Source: Deltaproteobacteria bacterium
GTDB lineage: Bacteria; Desulfobacterota; Desulfarculia; Adiutricales; Adiutricaceae
NCBI GenBank assembly: GCA_031264185.1
Contig: JAISEL010000006.1
Span: forward strand, 62,001-126,000
Direction of reading: 5' to 3'
DNA length: 64,000 nucleotides
The notes below the pieces were generated by a model. It saw nothing but the letters and a program-made list of their open reading frames with translations, was not told the origin of the DNA and did no database searches. Positions 48,180-56,290 of this stretch are shown piece after piece (the stretch's first letter is position 1; every line of letters begins with the position of its first letter). Position numbers and translations under genes: made by a program.

Positions 48180-49544
48180 TGGCGATTCCTCGACCTTGCC
48201 TACGGCTGTGGAAACGTTCCTCATCATCACATACCGCGAACTTCGGAAGTTGGGGTTTGATGTCCTAAAATGCGATTTTCATCGAACCAAATGTTACTTG
48301 ATGTGTCGGCACTTTTGAAAGTGAACGTGACGAAGTTTTACGGCATTGAGTACGGAGAATTCCCGTGCCAAATCGCGCAGATGGGAAGTAGTTTATTGAC
48401 CACTAAATGAACCTGCGCCTATCGGAGCAGTTTGGGCAGTATTGCGCTCACCTGTTGCTGACGTAAAGTTCAACTTATTGTTCACAGCAACTTTCTGCGG
48501 CTTGACTGGGAGGGCATTGTGCCTAAGTTGGAATTGTCGTACATACTTGGCAATCCGCCGTTTTAGGGCTTGTCGTTAAGTTCACCTGAACAGCAGAACA
48601 ATACGGAAGCAGTTTTCGCGGACAACGACATTGAGGGACGTTTGGATTATGTTGCCACGTTGTATAAAATAGCGACACAATATATATAAGTATACATGGT
48701 AGGCGAATAGAATGTGCTTTTGTATATACAACTCAATAATACAGGGAGAGAAAGTACCTATTTTATAGGGTGATTTATGCGGAGCCGGTTGGGTAAAGAT
48801 AAACTTTGCTTACCGCACTTTCACTTTGAGTAACGAGGCGAAATGCAAAGCTAGCCGTGCATTGCGTGATGTTTGATTCTCATAGCTTAAGTGAAAGGCA
48901 AGCTGTTATTTGAGCCTGACGAAAACGGTGAACTTCTCTGGAAGAGTTTCACGCATTTTAATGGCTATTTTATCGCCACAAGCGATATATTTATTGAGTT
49001 GCGTGGCAAAGTGCATTCTGGATATCCTCGTTTCATGCAAGGTAGCAAACCTGAGGAGGAGGGTTTCTAATATTGTCTGAAACCGAACGAGTGGAACTGT
49101 TGTTATTCTAAGTCGCTTTTAAGACAGCAGTAATTAAAATCAATAATGCAGAAATAAAATTATTTATCACAGTTGTGATTATCCATGAAATAGCCAGTCA
49201 TAGCTAACTTTTCTGAGATAAAAGTGAGTATTATAGCCTGAAGCGACTCCATTGCTGTTTTTAAGAATAACTGCGATCTTGAAAACAATTTAGAATTACG
49301 ACACCCGGAAGTGGAGCCTTTTGTCCGCCAGTATGTAGGGTCAAGCGAGTTTATAAATAATGGAAAGAGGTATTGCTTGTGGCTGAATGGTGTATTGCCA
49401 ACGGAACTCCGTATGGCGCACCAAGCCAACGGCAAGGCAGTTATGAAGTTGTATGGCTTCACCGTTGGCAAGACGACAGAGGTGGATTGCGTGACGATGT
49501 TGATGGAGAGGTATGTAAGCTTGAATAAAGGATGTAATGCGTAA
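48180..49544 (+). pseudogene. Heavily decayed large DNA methyltransferase (MmeI-like / class I N6-adenine)
   Basis: Segments in changing frames line up in the order of this family: a SAM-binding motif I remnant (DLAYGCGN, from DPACGCGN), FYGIEYGEFPCQIAQMG, LSYILGNPPF (catalytic motif IV NPPF), KINFAYRTFTLSNEAK, GYFIATSDIFIELRGK, then VRQYVGSSEFINNGKRYCLW and KLYGFTVGKTTEVDCVTMLM up to the stop at 49542-49544. More than five frame breaks and stops make it inactive. Its last stop overlaps the ATG of the Dam-like gene (TAATG), showing that it was the first gene of that operon. Confidence 0.75.
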
Positions 49545-50422
49545 TGCGTTTTTACTCACCTTTAAGATACCCCGGCGGTAAGAGCAAACTGGTGCCGCTG
49601 GTTAAACTCTTGATAAAGAATTCCGGGCGCGAGGGCGCGACATACATAGAACCATTCGCGGGCGGCGCAGGCGTTGCTTTGTCGTTATTGTTAGATGGAA
49701 CCGTCGAAAGGATTGTGATTAACGATTACGATAAGGCGGTCTACTCGGTTTGGCGAGCCATTAAACGTGAGCCGTCTGAATTAATAAGGCTAATTGATAA
49801 AACGCCTGTTACTATTGATGAGTGGCAGCGGCAACGAGCTATTTACATCGGTTACTCTCGTGGGTATAGCGTGGAGTTGGCTTTCGCCGCACTTTTTCTG
49901 AATAGAGTTAATCGGTCCGGAATTATAACCGGAGGCCCGATAGGCGGGTTTGCTCAAGAGGGTGATTGGAAACTTGACGTGCGTTTTAATAAAACCGCAA
50001 TTATAGAGCGAGTTAACGATGTTTCAAAAAGGCGCAACGCTATCAAGGTGTATAACCAAGATATTATCCGTCTGGTGGATTCGTATGTGCCGCAGTTTGC
50101 TGACGAAGCGTTTATTTACTTCGACCCACCGTACTTCAACAAGGCGAATAAATTATATAAAAACGCCCTGTCACACGGCGACCACGTCCGCATTGCTGAC
50201 CGCATACTCAATAATGTAGCGTGTCCGTGGATGTTGACTTATGACGATGTTCCTGAAATTCGGGCGCTGTATCAACATATGGAAATACGGCGGATTGACC
50301 TGACGTACAGTGCTGCTAATAAGGGCAAGGCATCGGAGATTATTGTTTGCAGCGACTCCAAATTCTATCCATCATACGATGATATATGCAATGACATTTT
50401 TGGTCTAAATATGCGTAACTGA
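49544..50422 (+). CDS. D12-class (Dam-like) DNA adenine methyltransferase
   Basis: This 292-residue protein methylates N6 of adenine in duplex DNA. Features in order: the start block FYSPLRYPGGKSKLVP, SAM-binding motif I EPFAGGAGVALSLLL (about 38-52), NDYDKAVYSVW, the target-recognition middle (FLNRVNRSGIITGGPIGG) and catalytic motif IV FDPPYF (about 194-199). The length and FxGxG...DPPY order fit D12 enzymes. The ATG overlaps the preceding methylase stop, and the next gene starts 11 bp after its stop. It is intact, with more AT-rich codon use than host genes, indicating transfer. A GATC-type target is only a family expectation. Confidence 0.92.
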   Translation: MRFYSPLRYPGGKSKLVPLVKLLIKNSGREGATYIEPFAGGAGVALSLLLDGTVERIVINDYDKAVYSVWRAIKREPSELIRLIDKTPVTIDEWQRQRAIYIGYSRGYSVELAFAALFLNRVNRSGIITGGPIGGFAQEGDWKLDVRFNKTAIIERVNDVSKRRNAIKVYNQDIIRLVDSYVPQFADEAFIYFDPPYFNKANKLYKNALSHGDHVRIADRILNNVACPWMLTYDDVPEIRALYQHMEIRRIDLTYSAANKGKASEIIVCSDSKFYPSYDDICNDIFGLNMRN

Positions 50423-50433
50423 GCGGGTGTAAA

Positions 50434-52164
50434 GTGATTATTAAAGAGGTTCAGATTGAGAAGTTTAGGGCTTTTAATAATACATCTTTTAAGCTCGGAA
50501 AATACATTACGGCTATAGCAGGGAGGAACGCCACGCAGAAAACCACTGTGCTTGGATTAATCGGGCAGCCCTTTACAATTTCACAGAAAGACCACCCTTT
50601 ATTTGGGTGCAAAACTATTGACGGCTATGACTTTAAGTCACAGTTTAGCGAAAAGTTTAAGTTTTCGGACAGAGAGCAAGCAGGTGAACACAGATGGACG
50701 GTACATTTGTATAATAGTGTCTACATCTACAAAGGCGAGTCCAAGTCCTACTTTACATCTGAGACCATTGTTCGTGAACGGAGAACTGGCAAACTGCGTA
50801 TATGGAACGCCGAGGATAAAAAACGCGAAACTGGTGGCGGATACGTTCAAGTGCCAGTATACTATTTGAGCTTGAGCAGACTTTTTCCCATTGGTGAGAC
50901 CGTTGGACGAACAATACCGCTTGATGTGCAATTGACACAGAAGGAACACGAGTATTGTATGAATTGGTACAGAAAAATATTGCGTATTCAAGCGGACGAG
51001 GCGACTGCGCCTGCAACAGAGAATATCCAACCGGTGTTTGGGGTAGAGGAGAAAACAGCCAAATTGAAGTTTGCAGGTGTTACAGATGGCAAGCACGATA
51101 TAAAGACTAATTCAGCAGGCGAGGGTAATATTTCCCGTATTATTCTTGCTATGCTTTCTTTCAAACGTCTTTACGATCAAAAAAATGCAAACTGCTATAG
51201 AGGTGGTCTTCTGCTCATTGATGAACTTGATGCGGCAGTATATCCCCGTTCACAAAAAGAGTTAGTAAAATATTTGCGAGCCGAGGCTAAAAATTATAGG
51301 GTTCAAGTAGTCTTTACGACTCATTCGCCTATTGTATTACAAGAATTGAACGATATTCACTTGGAGGGAAAAAAGCGGATTATAGGCCTAAAGTCTAAAG
51401 CTAATTCATATAAGTATACAATAGTATACTTAGAGCCTGACTCAAGTAAAATTGGTCAGGTTAATGCTAGAAATATTGGTAGCGCAAGGGAATTGAGGAG
51501 ATGCTTGGATAATATGGATTTTAAGCCTACCATGTCCGATCCACAGATGAGAGTGTATTGTGAAGACGCCGTTGCCAGCGGCTTTTTGAAGTATGTCTTG
51601 GCGAAATATATAGATAATACTGGAGAATTTTTTGATTTTCAAGAGATAAATTTTGGCTGGACGAACTATGTTACACTCCTCGAAAAAAACGCGTTTAAGG
51701 TCCGTGATAGTCTTATAATGCTGGATGCAGATGTGCCAACACTGGCTGGCTATGATAAACATAAAGCACTGATTGAAGAATGTAAAAATGTTGTCATACT
51801 CCCTATTGTAGTTGAAGAAGGGTTATTCCGATTGCTTAAAGACAAAAATAGTTACTCAGCGTTTTTATGCTCTTTGCATGGAAAAGATTTCCCTTATGAG
51901 GTATGCTTTAATGAGTGGATTGAAACATCATGTTACTATAAAAATAATGACAGAAAACAATTTAAACAATGGTATAAGTATGTAGTGCAAATTGTAGGGG
52001 TGCAGCCATTGTACGATTTTTGGCTCACAAAAAATAAAGAAGATGCCGATACGTTTGTTAAGTTATACATCAATGCATATAATAAACTTGCGGATAGACT
52101 CAAACTTGACCCATTACCTATGCCAGTAGATACAGAAGGTGAAGGTGAAGACGTAGAGGCGTAG
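50434..52164 (+). CDS. ABC-type ATPase with C-terminal TOPRIM-like region (OLD-like)
   Basis: This 576-residue protein starts at GTG. The N-terminal AAA/ABC ATPase has MIIKEVQIEKFRAFNNTSFK and a variant P-loop AGRNATQKTT (30-38, Gln in place of the last Gly). A signature-like SAGEGNISRI lies near 226, Walker B LLLIDELDAAVYP near 256-268 and the H-loop TTHSP near 297. The C-terminal part has MRVYCEDAVASGFLKYVL (about 371-388) and DSLIMLDADVP (about 425-435), the Glu and Asp-x-Asp arrangement of TOPRIM nucleases, so the whole resembles OLD/GajA-type defence ATPase-nucleases. It is coupled to the Dam-like methylase. The nuclease assignment rests on pattern only. Confidence 0.8.
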   Translation: MIIKEVQIEKFRAFNNTSFKLGKYITAIAGRNATQKTTVLGLIGQPFTISQKDHPLFGCKTIDGYDFKSQFSEKFKFSDREQAGEHRWTVHLYNSVYIYKGESKSYFTSETIVRERRTGKLRIWNAEDKKRETGGGYVQVPVYYLSLSRLFPIGETVGRTIPLDVQLTQKEHEYCMNWYRKILRIQADEATAPATENIQPVFGVEEKTAKLKFAGVTDGKHDIKTNSAGEGNISRIILAMLSFKRLYDQKNANCYRGGLLLIDELDAAVYPRSQKELVKYLRAEAKNYRVQVVFTTHSPIVLQELNDIHLEGKKRIIGLKSKANSYKYTIVYLEPDSSKIGQVNARNIGSARELRRCLDNMDFKPTMSDPQMRVYCEDAVASGFLKYVLAKYIDNTGEFFDFQEINFGWTNYVTLLEKNAFKVRDSLIMLDADVPTLAGYDKHKALIEECKNVVILPIVVEEGLFRLLKDKNSYSAFLCSLHGKDFPYEVCFNEWIETSCYYKNNDRKQFKQWYKYVVQIVGVQPLYDFWLTKNKEDADTFVKLYINAYNKLADRLKLDPLPMPVDTEGEGEDVEA

Positions 52165-52190
52165 ATACTGTATGCTTTTGCGGTTCTACT

Positions 52191-52281
52191 ATTACCCCTG
52201 CTGATAATTATGATAATGTATTTCTTCATTGATTTTAGCTTATGATGATTTGTTTGTATCAAAATTTTCCGCCGGGGTAAT
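52191..52281 (+). mobile_element. MITE, 91-bp class, copy 2
   Basis: The ends are ATTACCCCTGCTGATAATTA and the inverse of ATTACCCCGGCGGAAAATTT. The interior is the same as the copy at 20166 with a few changes. It lies 27 bp after the stop of the ATPase gene and may serve as its transcription end by folding. Confidence 0.82.
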
Positions 52282-52669
52282 ATGAAACTAAGGAGCTGGA
52301 AATAAATAACTTTTACGTTTCCCCAAGAAATTTATTTTTTTTGCATTAGTTACCTTGATTCCTATCATCTTTAATCTATTTGCAGTATAGGTATGGCTAA
52401 TAAGATAAACTATAGTTTCTGCCTAATCCTGTAAAGGTTGGCCTTTCCAATTGGATTAATATGTGTATAGCGATTACGTGAGGAGCTATACATATTAAGG
52501 AAGCAATAATTTATCAAGAAATTGGCCTCTGTAGTAGTTGGCACAATTTTTTGCGTTGGTTAAAGCAGTTTGTCAAGTGGTATGTTTTTTGCAGATTATC
52601 TCAGATCCCACTTATTTTGTTGGGAAATTGTGTTACGCGACTAGCCATCTATTGCCTTCCGGTACTTAT

Positions 52670-52760
52670 ATTACCCAGGCGGATAATTATGATAATCTAT
52701 TTTTTCATTAATTTTACCTTATGATGATTTGTTTGTATCAAAATTATCCGCCGGGGCAAT
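52670..52760 (+). mobile_element. MITE, 91-bp class, copy 3
   Basis: The ends are ATTACCCAGGCGGATAATTA and the inverse of ATTGCCCCGGCGGATAATTT. It is 91 bp and the closest match to copy 1. The 388 bp between copies 2 and 3 contain no recognised gene. Confidence 0.84.
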
Positions 52761-52950
52761 AATTTAATATTCAATTTGTCTCTAAATCCAAATTATTATT
52801 GAATAAAATAGTTTTCACATTTTATTAATTGAACTATTAAAAATTTCACTCTTATGATAAATTTAAATCAGGATTGGCATAAAATTTGCTATTGCGGTGA
52901 TCGGCTACATAAGGACCGGCGATTGATAGCGCAGCTTGTTTTTTTTGACT

Positions 52951-53115: not shown

Positions 53116-53446
53116 CCCTGTGAAACTGTCACCTAATCAATCCACACTCCCAGAATATTCCCACCGCATCCAAGCTAAGGTCATAGTTGAGGACATCGTG
53201 GTTCAGCAGATAGACGGCAGTCGTCTGTGTCGCGTAAGCAGGTCAACTTCTCCAGCGTGTGCGCATCATTTGACAGGAATCCACTCCCTGGGTCGGTGGT
53301 TCCGGTTTAACTGCCAGAGGCGGGTTTAAGCTTCAACGGCGGCGGTTTTTTCAATCTTGTCGGTCATGGCCGTGTTCCTTCCCTGGCGTTTTAAGGCCAG
53401 TTCGAAAAAAATGAAAGCGGTTGATATGTACCTAAAATTGGTACAT

Positions 53447-53627
53447 ACTAGCCCGGCGGATAATTTTGATAAAAGAGTTTATCCTTTGTTTCTTCAGTCT
53501 TTAGCAGACTCAAAGATTTATGCAGCTTCTATAGTCTATTTGTAATATGGATATAAAATTATTATACCGTGATCGTATGTAAATAATAAGGAGTATTAGA
53601 TCTATCATAATTATCCGCCAGGTTAAT
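53447..53627 (-). mobile_element. MITE, ~180-bp class, copy 2 (inverted)
   Basis: This is an inverted match to 17453-17631 over the full length. Ends on the plus strand are ACTAGCCCGGCGGATAATTT and the inverse of ATTAACCTGGCGGATAATTA. It lies 80 bp from copy B of the ~320-bp element, so two unrelated element families sit together. Confidence 0.82.
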
Positions 53628-53706
53628 AATGAGATTATGAAGTGGACAGTCCGTTACAGCTCCAAAGTCGGCAAACAAGCTCGCAATCTGCCTTAAGCGG
53701 TACTAA

Positions 53707-54035: not shown

Positions 54036-54242
54036 AGGCCCTGGATCCTAATCGCGGATATAGAGTTGAACGGCCCGGTACGGGGCGACTGGCCCAATTA
54101 CAGTAAGCTGACCGACAAGGATCATCACTGCCATCTGAAAAAAGGTCGTCCGACGTATGTGGCCGTGTGGTCGGAAGAAGACGGGGACATACGTCTGGTG
54201 GAGGTGCAATATGTTGGAACCCACGAAAAAGCCCCCTATTGA
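54036..54242 (+). pseudogene. Toxin gene of a toxin-antitoxin pair, 5'-truncated
   Basis: The surviving ~63 codons read IELNGPVRGDWPNYSKLTDK, CHLKKGRPTYVAVWSEEDGD and VQYVGTHEKAPY. These align with the C-terminal two-thirds of the toxin at 56387 (EEEGPERRNWPYYGPV...VYIAVWLV...RCVGTHENEDY), a RelE/HigB-like cytotoxic fold. The N-terminus and promoter are replaced by the ~320-bp element 7 bp upstream. The product should not be made, leaving an orphan antitoxin. Confidence 0.72.
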
Positions 54243-54558
54243 TATTTTCAAGGTCATCTGCCCGGCGGATATCGCCGGGGCCATGAAGAAGTATTTGCGT
54301 GAGCACGGATGCCAGCTCGAAGTTACCTTGAGCCCGGAGGAAGTCTTTCCCCAGCGCAGTCCTGGTACGCTTCTCCAGGGGGCGCGTTATCGCGAAGACT
54401 TGACCCAGGCGGAACTGGCTAAACTCACCGGCATTCCGCGCCGTCATATTTCCGAAATGGAAAATGGTCACCGGAGCATCGGCAAACAGACGGCCAAAAG
54501 GCTGGCGCAGGCGCTCAATATTGACCATCGCCTTTTGCTTGGAGATATCGGGCGGTAA
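54211..54558 (+). CDS. HTH-type (XRE/HigA-like) antitoxin, orphaned
   Basis: This 115-residue frame (from ATG 54211, overlapping the toxin end) has an N-terminal half rich in acidic and hydrophobic residues. An XRE helix-turn-helix follows: GARYREDLTQAELAKLTGIP, RRHISEMENGHRSIGKQTAK, RLAQALNIDHRLLL. It is homologous to the antitoxin at 56667 (AREGITQKQMADKLGI...HISEMEKGVRPI). The frame is intact although its toxin is truncated and its promoter lost. It may be silent or read from outside. Confidence 0.82.
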   Translation: MLEPTKKPPIDIFKVICPADIAGAMKKYLREHGCQLEVTLSPEEVFPQRSPGTLLQGARYREDLTQAELAKLTGIPRRHISEMENGHRSIGKQTAKRLAQALNIDHRLLLGDIGR

Positions 54559-55137: not shown

Positions 55138-56290
55138 TTACTGCCTCTTAGGCCAGCGGGGCCGGAATAACTTCCTGGCTCTGGCCGTCAGTGAGCGGCC
55201 TGGGGAAATGAAGGGGATCGGACAGGCCACGGGAATAACCGTTAGCCACGCCGGGGACTTTGACTTTGGCCCGAGCGGAAAACACCGGGTCCAGAAAAAA
55301 TAGAATCTGCCGACCGTAGTTCGGTGGATTGCCATCGTGAAAATGAGCATGTCGCCGGGTACGGCGTTGTCGGCCGTTTCTTTTGAAAGGCCCGGCAGGC
55401 GCATGCATTCGTCAGGCGTCAGTATCGGCCGGGAGGTTTCGGAGATGGAGGTAGAGCGGGACTTGCCGCCTTTGGCCCTGCCGGAGATGGAGATTTTTTT
55501 ATCCAACACGGTGGTGGTTCCGACCATTTTCGGCAGGTATTCAGCGGTCTCCGGAAGGTTGGGCGCATAGGCGATACGCACGTGGCAGGCTGTCCGCCGG
55601 GGATGCTCATGGCCGAATCGAGGCGGACTTTGGCCAGGGGATTGAAAGCCGACGATGTTCCATCCGAATCCGAAGGATCGAAGCGCAAAACCTTGCGGCC
55701 TTGGCTTTTGAGATGCCCGACGGTCAGAGCGAAGTTTTCCCTCTTTATGCCAAGGACCGGGGAACTGGGCGGCTAGGACAGGAGCGCGGGCAGGACCAGC
55801 CCCCCTTTGCCGCTCCGGGTCGGGGCGAAACAGAGGACATGCTCCGGCGTGTTGTGCCGGAGGTAATAGAGGATGCGCTTTTTCGGCTCCCAGAAGCCGC
55901 CGGTGCAGACGCTCTCGCCTTTTAGGCAGTTCAGCGCCTTGATGTCTTAGAAGGCAGCCCAGCGGACGGAGCCGTGGAGGTCGTCACGGCCTTTGAGCCC
56001 ATGCTGGCCAGCCATGCAGAGAATGAAGCCCAAGAGCGGCAGGCCGATACACGCCAGACAGGCTTGATCGACGTAGCGACCTGCTTCCTCATGCCCGGGG
56101 CGAATCGGCTGGACCACTCGGAGAGCTTCCAGGGACAGAAAAAGGCATGGTCCTGAATCTGGAACAGGGGTGTCCCAGGTCCGGGTGATAGTCGAACAGG
56201 CCAGCCGCCAGAGGCCGATGGGCGTGAGCAATACCCAGCGCCAGGCCCAGCCTCCTTGCTGTTTGTTTTTGGCGACTGAGGTGACCGTAT
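55138..56290 (-). pseudogene. TraG/VirD4 coupling protein, internally deleted and frameshifted
   Basis: On the minus strand the relic starts with a membrane region (LLTPIGLWRLACSTITRTW), then HGSVRWAAF, YLRHNTPEHVLCFAPTRSGK (Walker A), VLRFDPSDSDGTSSAFNPLA and AMSIPGGQPATC. It jumps directly to the C-terminal part: IAYAPNLPETAEYLPKMVGT, TTVLDKKISIS and ETSRPILTPDECMRLPG, followed by a frame change to QILFFLDPVFSARAKV. About 300 residues between VRL...MSIP and IAYAPN are missing. The family is the ATPase that links the relaxosome to the type IV secretion channel. Non-functional. Confidence 0.75.

What the first reader, a model, noticed from the sequence alone, without database searches (positions are those of the whole stretch)
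49544..52164. Candidate two-gene defence module: Dam-like methylase plus ATPase-TOPRIM protein
An intact D12 adenine methylase is followed after 11 bp by an intact ATPase with TOPRIM-like residues, resembling OLD/GajA-type nucleases. Both survive in an island where the first methylase of the same operon and nearly everything else is decayed, suggesting selection to keep the pair. A self-protecting methylase with an ATP-driven nuclease would be a compact restriction-like system. I do not know a described system with exactly this pair.
Basis: partly seen in the sequence, partly recalled or inferred. Interest (0 to 1): 0.65.

Follow-up and report, generated by a model that had tools for sequence, protein, structure and literature searches.

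The report
Methylase plus OLD-type nuclease defence pair
Two neighbouring genes, a DNA-marking enzyme and a probable ATP-driven DNA-cutting enzyme, form a widespread mobile module that is probably anti-viral; it shares its marking enzyme with a known defence system (PD-lambda-5) but uses a different cutting enzyme, and even some E. coli prophages carry it unrecognised.

Summary
Both ORFs are intact (MTase 49544-50422; ATPase 50434-52164; 11 bp apart) beside the remains of a decayed MmeI-type methylase. The MTase belongs to the PD-lambda-5_B family (PADLOC 3.9e-107). Its partner is not the ParB-like PD-lambda-5_A but an OLD-class ATPase with a C-terminal TOPRIM-type domain. Across 67 sequences (homologues 19-47% identical to it) the only invariant residues are ABC-ATPase motifs and E377, D378, D431 and D433. 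The AF2 model (pLDDT 87) best matches the Retron-Eco8 effector, TsOLD and GajA.

The pair is recurrent. In an ATPase-anchored scan, 74 of 80 viral contigs also have the MTase. In an MTase-anchored genome scan, 27 of 80 loci have the ATPase and 44 the ParB-like protein (4 have both). Partner type changes at least 17 times on the MTase tree, so the MTase is a shared module with exchangeable effectors (ATPase-TOPRIM, ParB-like, sometimes HerA-NurA). The pair often sits beside phage integrases; 85 of 5,426 complete E. coli genomes carry a close copy under generic names.

No description of this pair was found in the papers held; one relevant survey was not held. Best mechanism: a methylation-guarded nuclease. 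This is inferred; no function was tested.

The parts
49544..50422 (+). D12 N6-adenine DNA methyltransferase, PD-lambda-5_B family (292 aa)
   Evidence: ORF; PF02086 9.9e-23; PADLOC PD-Lambda-5_B PDLC04018 3.9e-107 over nearly the whole protein; nearest relatives are clostridial MTases with the same ATPase partner, up to 58% identity
49649..49678 (+). MTase AdoMet-binding motif I (EPFAGGAGVA, residues 36-45)
   Evidence: E36, G40 and G41 in 138 of 138 family members
49892..49993 (+). MTase segment aligned to the Dam/DpnM target-recognition hairpin (residues 117-150, FLNRVNRSGI..GPIGG..Q.G...D.R)
   Evidence: 11 of the 42 positions conserved at >=95% in 138 MTases fall in residues 120-147; alignment to EcoDam and DpnM
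50123..50134 (+). MTase catalytic motif IV DPPY (residues 194-197)
   Evidence: 138 of 138
50434..52164 (+). OLD-class ATPase with C-terminal TOPRIM-type domain (576 aa), proposed effector
   Evidence: AAA_15 3.1e-17; AF2 model pLDDT 87.0, pTM 0.85; Foldseek best hits Retron-Eco8 effector 3.3e-13, TsOLD 5.4e-12, GajA 6.8e-11
50521..50547 (+). ATPase Walker A, G30-R-N-A-T-Q-K36-T-T38 (variable at two of the usual glycines)
   Evidence: K36 in 66 of 66 ungapped homologues; residue 35 is S, G, M, Q, A or C
51112..51129 (+). ABC signature (S227-x-G229-x-x-N232)
   Evidence: S227 and G229 in 67 of 67
51205..51234 (+). Walker B (G258-LLLIDELDA-267)
   Evidence: D263 and E264 in 67 of 67
51304..51327 (+). 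Q291 to H-loop TTHS298
   Evidence: Q291 and S298 in 67 of 67, H297 in 66 of 67
51562..51567 (+). TOPRIM-type first acidic motif E377-D378
   Evidence: 67 of 67; end of the strand modelled at 372-376
51724..51732 (+). TOPRIM-type DxD motif D431-A-D433
   Evidence: 67 of 67; end of the strand modelled at 427-430
48468..48686 (+). relic of a MmeI-type (type IIG/IIL) MTase domain with one stop; decayed neighbour, not part of the working module
   Evidence: PF20473 1.9e-14
49311..49544 (+). relic of MmeI TRD and C-terminal domains, probably the end of the same decayed gene
   Evidence: PF20466 1.5e-7, PF20467 1.2e-6; PADLOC REase_MTase_IIG 2.4e-15

Best explanation
This is a mobile two-gene defence module built around the PD-lambda-5-type methylase but with a different effector. 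The MTase marks adenines in a target sequence on the host chromosome. The partner is an OLD-class nuclease: an ABC ATPase head that senses or gates with ATP, joined to a TOPRIM-type metal-dependent nuclease. It attacks DNA that lacks the mark, chiefly incoming phage DNA. Because the same MTase family has been re-paired many times with unrelated effectors, the specificity of the module most likely lies in the methyl mark or in the MTase, and the effector is a replaceable killing part. Shown here: intact genes and catalytic residues, recurrent adjacency, partner exchange, mobile-element cargo position in relatives. Inferred: methylation of host DNA, nuclease activity, restraint by methylation, and defence itself.
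For: The MTase is PD-Lambda-5_B, a family member of an experimentally validated anti-phage system; that system was tested in a host with the mrr region deleted (PMC9519451), which I read as a sign that its MTase methylates DNA in vivo. ATPase-anchored scan of viral contigs: MTase within 3 kb in 74 of 80; of the six others, five loci end just past the ATPase and only L174 lacks it with sequence to spare. All eight plasmid records with an ATPase match also hold the MTase next to it. Gene order varies (MTase first in the window, Clostridia and L004; ATPase first in most viral and proteobacterial loci; convergent in L009) while adjacency is kept. Invariant ATPase and TOPRIM-type residues over 67 sequences; OLD-class model matches. 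Partner type changes at least 17 times on the MTase tree. MTases about 74% identical can carry ATPases about 22-25% identical. Cargo position next to integrase in phages and E. coli prophages. This fits an RM-type logic: one constant modifier, several alternative nucleolytic partners.
Against: No function was tested. PD-lambda-5, the validated cousin, protects more strongly against T-even phages, whose heavily modified DNA resists most classical restriction, so direct restriction of unmethylated DNA may not be the whole story. The isolated TOPRIM-type domain matches OLD C-terminal regions as ranks 1, 2 and 5 but only at E 0.06-0.24, and its first motif is E-D rather than the E-G-x-x-[D/E] of classical OLD (my recollection). 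The Walker A of the window copy lacks two usual glycines (GRNATQKTT). The target motif is unknown.
Confidence: 0.55

Rival explanations
1. Guard or abortive-infection system: the OLD nuclease is held off in a normally methylated cell and is released when a phage blocks or overruns the MTase (DNA mimics, unmethylated replicating DNA, phage nucleases), killing the cell by cutting DNA or tRNA, as PARIS does.
For: Vassallo et al. describe PD-lambda-5 as a compacted prophage version of an RM+Abi system. The nearest modelled OLD relatives, the Retron-Eco8 effector and GajA, act in abortive or DNA-end-sensing systems. The PARIS TOPRIM nuclease AriB cuts tRNA. Effectors diverge freely while the MTase is conserved, as expected if the effector need not read a DNA sequence.
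Against: No direct evidence for toxicity or triggering here. One clear ATPase without the MTase (L174) shows that such a protein can at least exist without the MTase nearby.
Confidence: 0.27
2. Methylation-dependent (Pgl- or type IV-like) system: the MTase marks phage DNA and the nuclease cuts marked DNA.
For: Modification-dependent nucleases and the Pgl system exist (established knowledge; a Pgl paper is listed). The same genome-level data would result.
Against: An active resident MTase would also mark the host chromosome, making the pair self-destructive unless expression is switched; no regulator gene is seen directly next to the pair.
Confidence: 0.07
3. Not primarily defence: the MTase and ATPase serve the mobile element itself, for example protecting prophage DNA from host restriction and helping its DNA metabolism.
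For: Prophage and plasmid homes next to integrases and recombinases. Many phages carry MTases of this broad kind.
Against: It sits outside the phage core modules at the integrase end, a usual cargo site. The same MTase family pairs with a validated defence protein and with HerA-NurA. The partner is exchangeable and the module sporadic.
Confidence: 0.08
4. Chance neighbours or decayed remnants with no joint function.
For: The local island is heavily decayed and the genome's second copy is broken.
Against: 74 of 80 adjacency in the ATPase-anchored viral scan, and all eight plasmid records.
Confidence: 0.03

Closest known systems
PD-lambda-5 (Vassallo et al. 2022, PMC9519451)
   Same: Same MTase family (PD-Lambda-5_B, 3.9e-107); two genes; prophage homes; ten non-redundant loci carry both partner types near one MTase.
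   Different: Partner is an OLD-class ATPase-TOPRIM protein instead of the ParB-like PD-Lambda-5_A; no PD-Lambda-5_A found in this genome with the two queries used.
OLD nucleases classes 1-4 (GajA of Gabija, retron I-B effectors such as Eco8, PARIS AriA/AriB)
   Same: ABC ATPase head plus C-terminal TOPRIM-type domain; best structural matches; weak sequence match to retron I-B ATPase-Toprim.
   Different: The genetic partner is a DNA methylase, not a UvrD helicase, a reverse transcriptase with ncRNA, or nothing; the review of the classes does not mention methyltransferases. The first TOPRIM motif is E-D.
Type II restriction-modification
   Same: Adenine MTase next to a putative nuclease on mobile DNA.
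   Different: The nuclease is an ATPase-TOPRIM protein, not a PD-(D/E)XK or HNH endonuclease; the MTase is shared among unrelated effectors; a shared target sequence is untested.
BREX-associated TOPRIM-linked OLD-ABC modules (PMC12839542)
   Same: OLD-ABC ATPase-TOPRIM proteins placed next to methylation-based defence.
   Different: There they are auxiliary to a multi-gene BREX locus; here the pair stands alone with a D12 MTase.

Membership tests
PD-lambda-5 | PD-Lambda-5_B-type D12 methylase | tested here: met
   PDLC04018 3.9e-107 over residues 1-278
PD-lambda-5 | adjacent ParB-like PD-Lambda-5_A | tested here: not met
   The ATPase C-terminal region hits only ATPase-Toprim_I-B, and no PD-Lambda-5_A is among the 25 best models for the whole protein; PD-Lambda-5_A models hit the ParB-like protein of L015; none found in the own genome with one PADLOC model and one ParB-like query, both without a positive control
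OLD family nuclease | N-terminal ABC ATPase with Walker A/B, signature and H-loop | tested here: met
   K36, S227, G229, D263, E264, Q291, S298
OLD family nuclease | C-terminal TOPRIM domain with E and DxD | tested here: met
   E377, D378, D431 and D433 in 67 of 67; model strand-helix order consistent; Foldseek ranks 1, 2 and 5 are OLD C-terminal regions, at weak E 0.06-0.24
Gabija | GajB UvrD-like helicase next to GajA | tested here: not met
   no such ORF next to the pair; the partner is the MTase in the homologues
Retron I-B | reverse transcriptase and retron ncRNA next to the ATPase-Toprim | tested here: not met
   no RT-sized ORF in the neighbourhood; ncRNA was not searched with a model
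PARIS | DUF4435 AriB, separate or fused | tested here: not met
   no DUF4435 hit for the protein or for any of 67 C-terminal regions
Type II restriction-modification | nuclease and MTase act on the same sequence, cleavage blocked by methylation | not testable with these tools
   needs methylome and cleavage assays
Anti-phage defence system | protects cells against phage | not testable with these tools
   only indirect: MTase family and mobile-element context

The most novel reading that the evidence does not exclude
A general 'plug-in' logic of bacterial immunity: one conserved adenine methylase family writes a family-wide self mark and unrelated effectors (ATPase-TOPRIM OLD protein, ParB-like protein, HerA-NurA, MrfA-like helicase) plug into it interchangeably. 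The OLD pairing would be a new, methylation-guarded OLD class. The near-invariant target-recognition segment predicts that family members in bacteria and archaea mark the same or a very similar sequence.
Probability: 0.35. Interest if true: 0.78.

Novelty: new variant of a known kind. Interest (0 to 1): 0.56.

Why it matters
OLD nucleases are a recurring effector in bacterial immunity, but how they tell self from non-self is open (for example for Gabija). A widespread class tied to a DNA methylase would give a concrete and easily tested answer: a methyl mark. The repeated exchange of effectors around one methylase also suggests that PD-lambda-5 is one case of a modular series. Close copies are in 85 of 5,426 complete E. 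coli genomes under generic names, so the module can be tested directly in K-12.

Tried and rejected
A genome-contig scan with the single ATPase sequence found nothing, as its patterns were probably too specific; the MTase alignment worked. An ATPase search in 297 genomes of the window's own phylum showed only this genome plus two weak partial hits without the MTase, so the module is not native to the lineage. Profile searches of the TOPRIM-type domain in PDB sequences and Pfam gave nothing, so the domain assignment rests on invariant residues and models. PD-lambda-5 membership was considered and rejected because of the partner. A one-to-one co-evolution signal between MTase and ATPase was looked for: r = 0.25 against a permutation maximum of 0.12, with only 17 of 66 nearest neighbours shared; it is above chance but weak, which supports exchange more than tight co-evolution, and relatedness was not controlled. 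Residues in the MTase that would tell the partner type were not found: the best single-column frequency difference was 0.46. Ten literature searches found no description of the pair; the ABC-ATPase survey cited is not held and may have mentioned it.
Full report
Observation. ORF 1 is a D12 adenine methylase. ORF 2 is an AAA_15-type ATPase whose C-terminal third has no Pfam match but weakly matches the PADLOC retron I-B ATPase-Toprim model. The island is AT-rich.

What the methylase is. PADLOC assigns it to PD-Lambda-5_B over nearly its full length (3.9e-107). PD-lambda-5 is an experimentally validated E. coli system; its authors called it a compacted prophage version of an RM+Abi system and used a host lacking the mrr region (PMC9519451). 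The PD-Lambda-5_A models recognise a ParB/Srx-like protein, and the window ATPase is not such a protein. The NCBIfam Dam subfamily cut-off is not reached (73.5 of 114.85 bits).

What the ATPase is. I aligned it with 66 relatives from genome and viral contigs (A3). Identity to the window protein is 19-47%, and the only invariant residues are S227, G229, D263, E264, Q291, S298 (ABC signature, Walker B, H-loop region) and E377, D378, D431, D433 (TOPRIM-type E and DxD). Walker A lysine K36 is present in 66 of 66 ungapped rows. AF2 gives pLDDT 87.0 and pTM 0.85. Foldseek puts the Retron-Eco8 effector, Thermus OLD and GajA on top (E 3.3e-13 to 6.8e-11; TM-scores over the whole chain are low because the domains are placed differently). 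The domain alone (pLDDT 91.0) has the Xanthomonas and Burkholderia OLD C-terminal regions as ranks 1, 2 and 5, at weak E-values of 0.06 to 0.24. I read this as a divergent TOPRIM in an OLD-class protein; the fold call rests on motif plus model, not on significant sequence similarity.

Is the pair real? Yes. ATPase-anchored: 74 of 80 viral loci have the MTase within 3 kb; five of the other six loci end just past the ATPase gene, and one (L174) lacks it with sequence to spare. All eight plasmid records with an ATPase match hold the MTase next to it. MTase-anchored: of 80 genome loci 23 have the ATPase, 40 the ParB-like protein, 4 both, 13 neither; of 39 viral loci with a family-level MTase the numbers are 12, 25, 1 and 1. 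Gene order and orientation differ between groups while adjacency stays. The pair also occurs a second time in the same genome, on contig C16, where the MTase is interrupted by an insertion and the ATPase is truncated next to a transposase-like ORF.

A shared methylase with exchangeable partners. On a tree of 138 non-redundant MTases the ATPase/ParB label needs at least 17 changes; well supported branches alone force 10 changes for the ATPase label and 12 for the ParB label (quick tree). MTases about 74% identical can carry ATPases 22-25% identical. Some loci hold all three genes, for example Vibrio phage ValB1MD-2 (where the ParB-like gene is split over two ORFs) and Rheinheimera L042. Several of the 13 'neither' loci have other partners: HerA plus NurA in L028, a MrfA/DEAD helicase in L030, a DndB-like protein in L041. 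The segment aligned to Dam's target-recognition hairpin is among the most conserved parts of the family, holding 11 of the 42 columns conserved at >=95%, so the members may mark a common sequence; this is inference.

Home and spread. The pair is cargo of mobile DNA: beside or near integrases in Streptococcus, Citrobacter and Vibrio phages and in E. coli prophages, and on a small Staphylococcus plasmid. 85 of 5,426 complete E. coli genomes hold a close copy, labelled only AAA family ATPase and DNA adenine methylase in the records listed. In the window's own phylum it is rare, and its closest relatives are clostridial, so it was probably acquired.

How it most likely works. The MTase marks host DNA; the OLD-class partner, gated by ATP, attacks DNA without the mark. 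The chain of shown steps ends at intact catalytic residues and conserved pairing; marking, cutting and protection are inferred. A guard or abortive version is the main rival, and PD-lambda-5's strength against T-even phages keeps it open.

Novelty. The MTase family and the OLD architecture are known; the stand-alone two-gene combination, a branch beside PD-lambda-5 and beside OLD classes 1-4, is not described as far as the papers held show. An ABC-ATPase survey not held is the main unread prior art. I file it as a new variant of a known kind.

Noticed in passing
window 52190-52282, 52669-52761, 53446-53628: MITE-like elements with 26-nt terminal inverted repeats (TATTACCCxGGCGGATAATTATGATA); the repeat end matches about 370 times in the genome at up to 3 mismatches against 10 for the reversed control. 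Translated sequence flanking the broken C16 MTase copy looks like the same repeat end (read by eye).
   Followed up: partly
G000:C16:1646-5938 (L002, L003, L017, L018, L264): Second copy of the same pair in this genome: MTase interrupted by an inserted transposase-like element, ATPase lacking about 60 C-terminal residues with a transposase-like ORF behind it.
   Followed up: yes
G000:C88:92826-93128 (L019): Fragment of a third related MTase with an in-frame stop.
   Followed up: no
L028, L032, L036, L023 (Clostridia): PD-lambda-5_B-type MTase followed by a HerA-like and a NurA-like gene (domains confirmed for L028 by Pfam; the others by similar ORF starts), in L036 preceded by a Schlafen AlbA protein: a possible third effector type.
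   Followed up: partly
L030, L038: Same MTase family next to a 1655-aa DEAD/MrfA-type helicase (Pfam run on L030 only).
   Followed up: no
L009 (Vibrio phage ValB1MD-2) 4001-8019: ATPase-TOPRIM gene and a PD-Lambda-5_A-like gene, the latter split over two ORFs, around one MTase.
   Followed up: partly
window 55138-55578 (-): Fragment of a T4SS coupling protein (TraG/VirD4, PF02534 3e-13), suggesting remains of a conjugative element near the island.
   Followed up: no
window 54157-54555 (+): HTH_3 regulator (1.1e-13) at the right edge of the AT-rich stretch.
   Followed up: no
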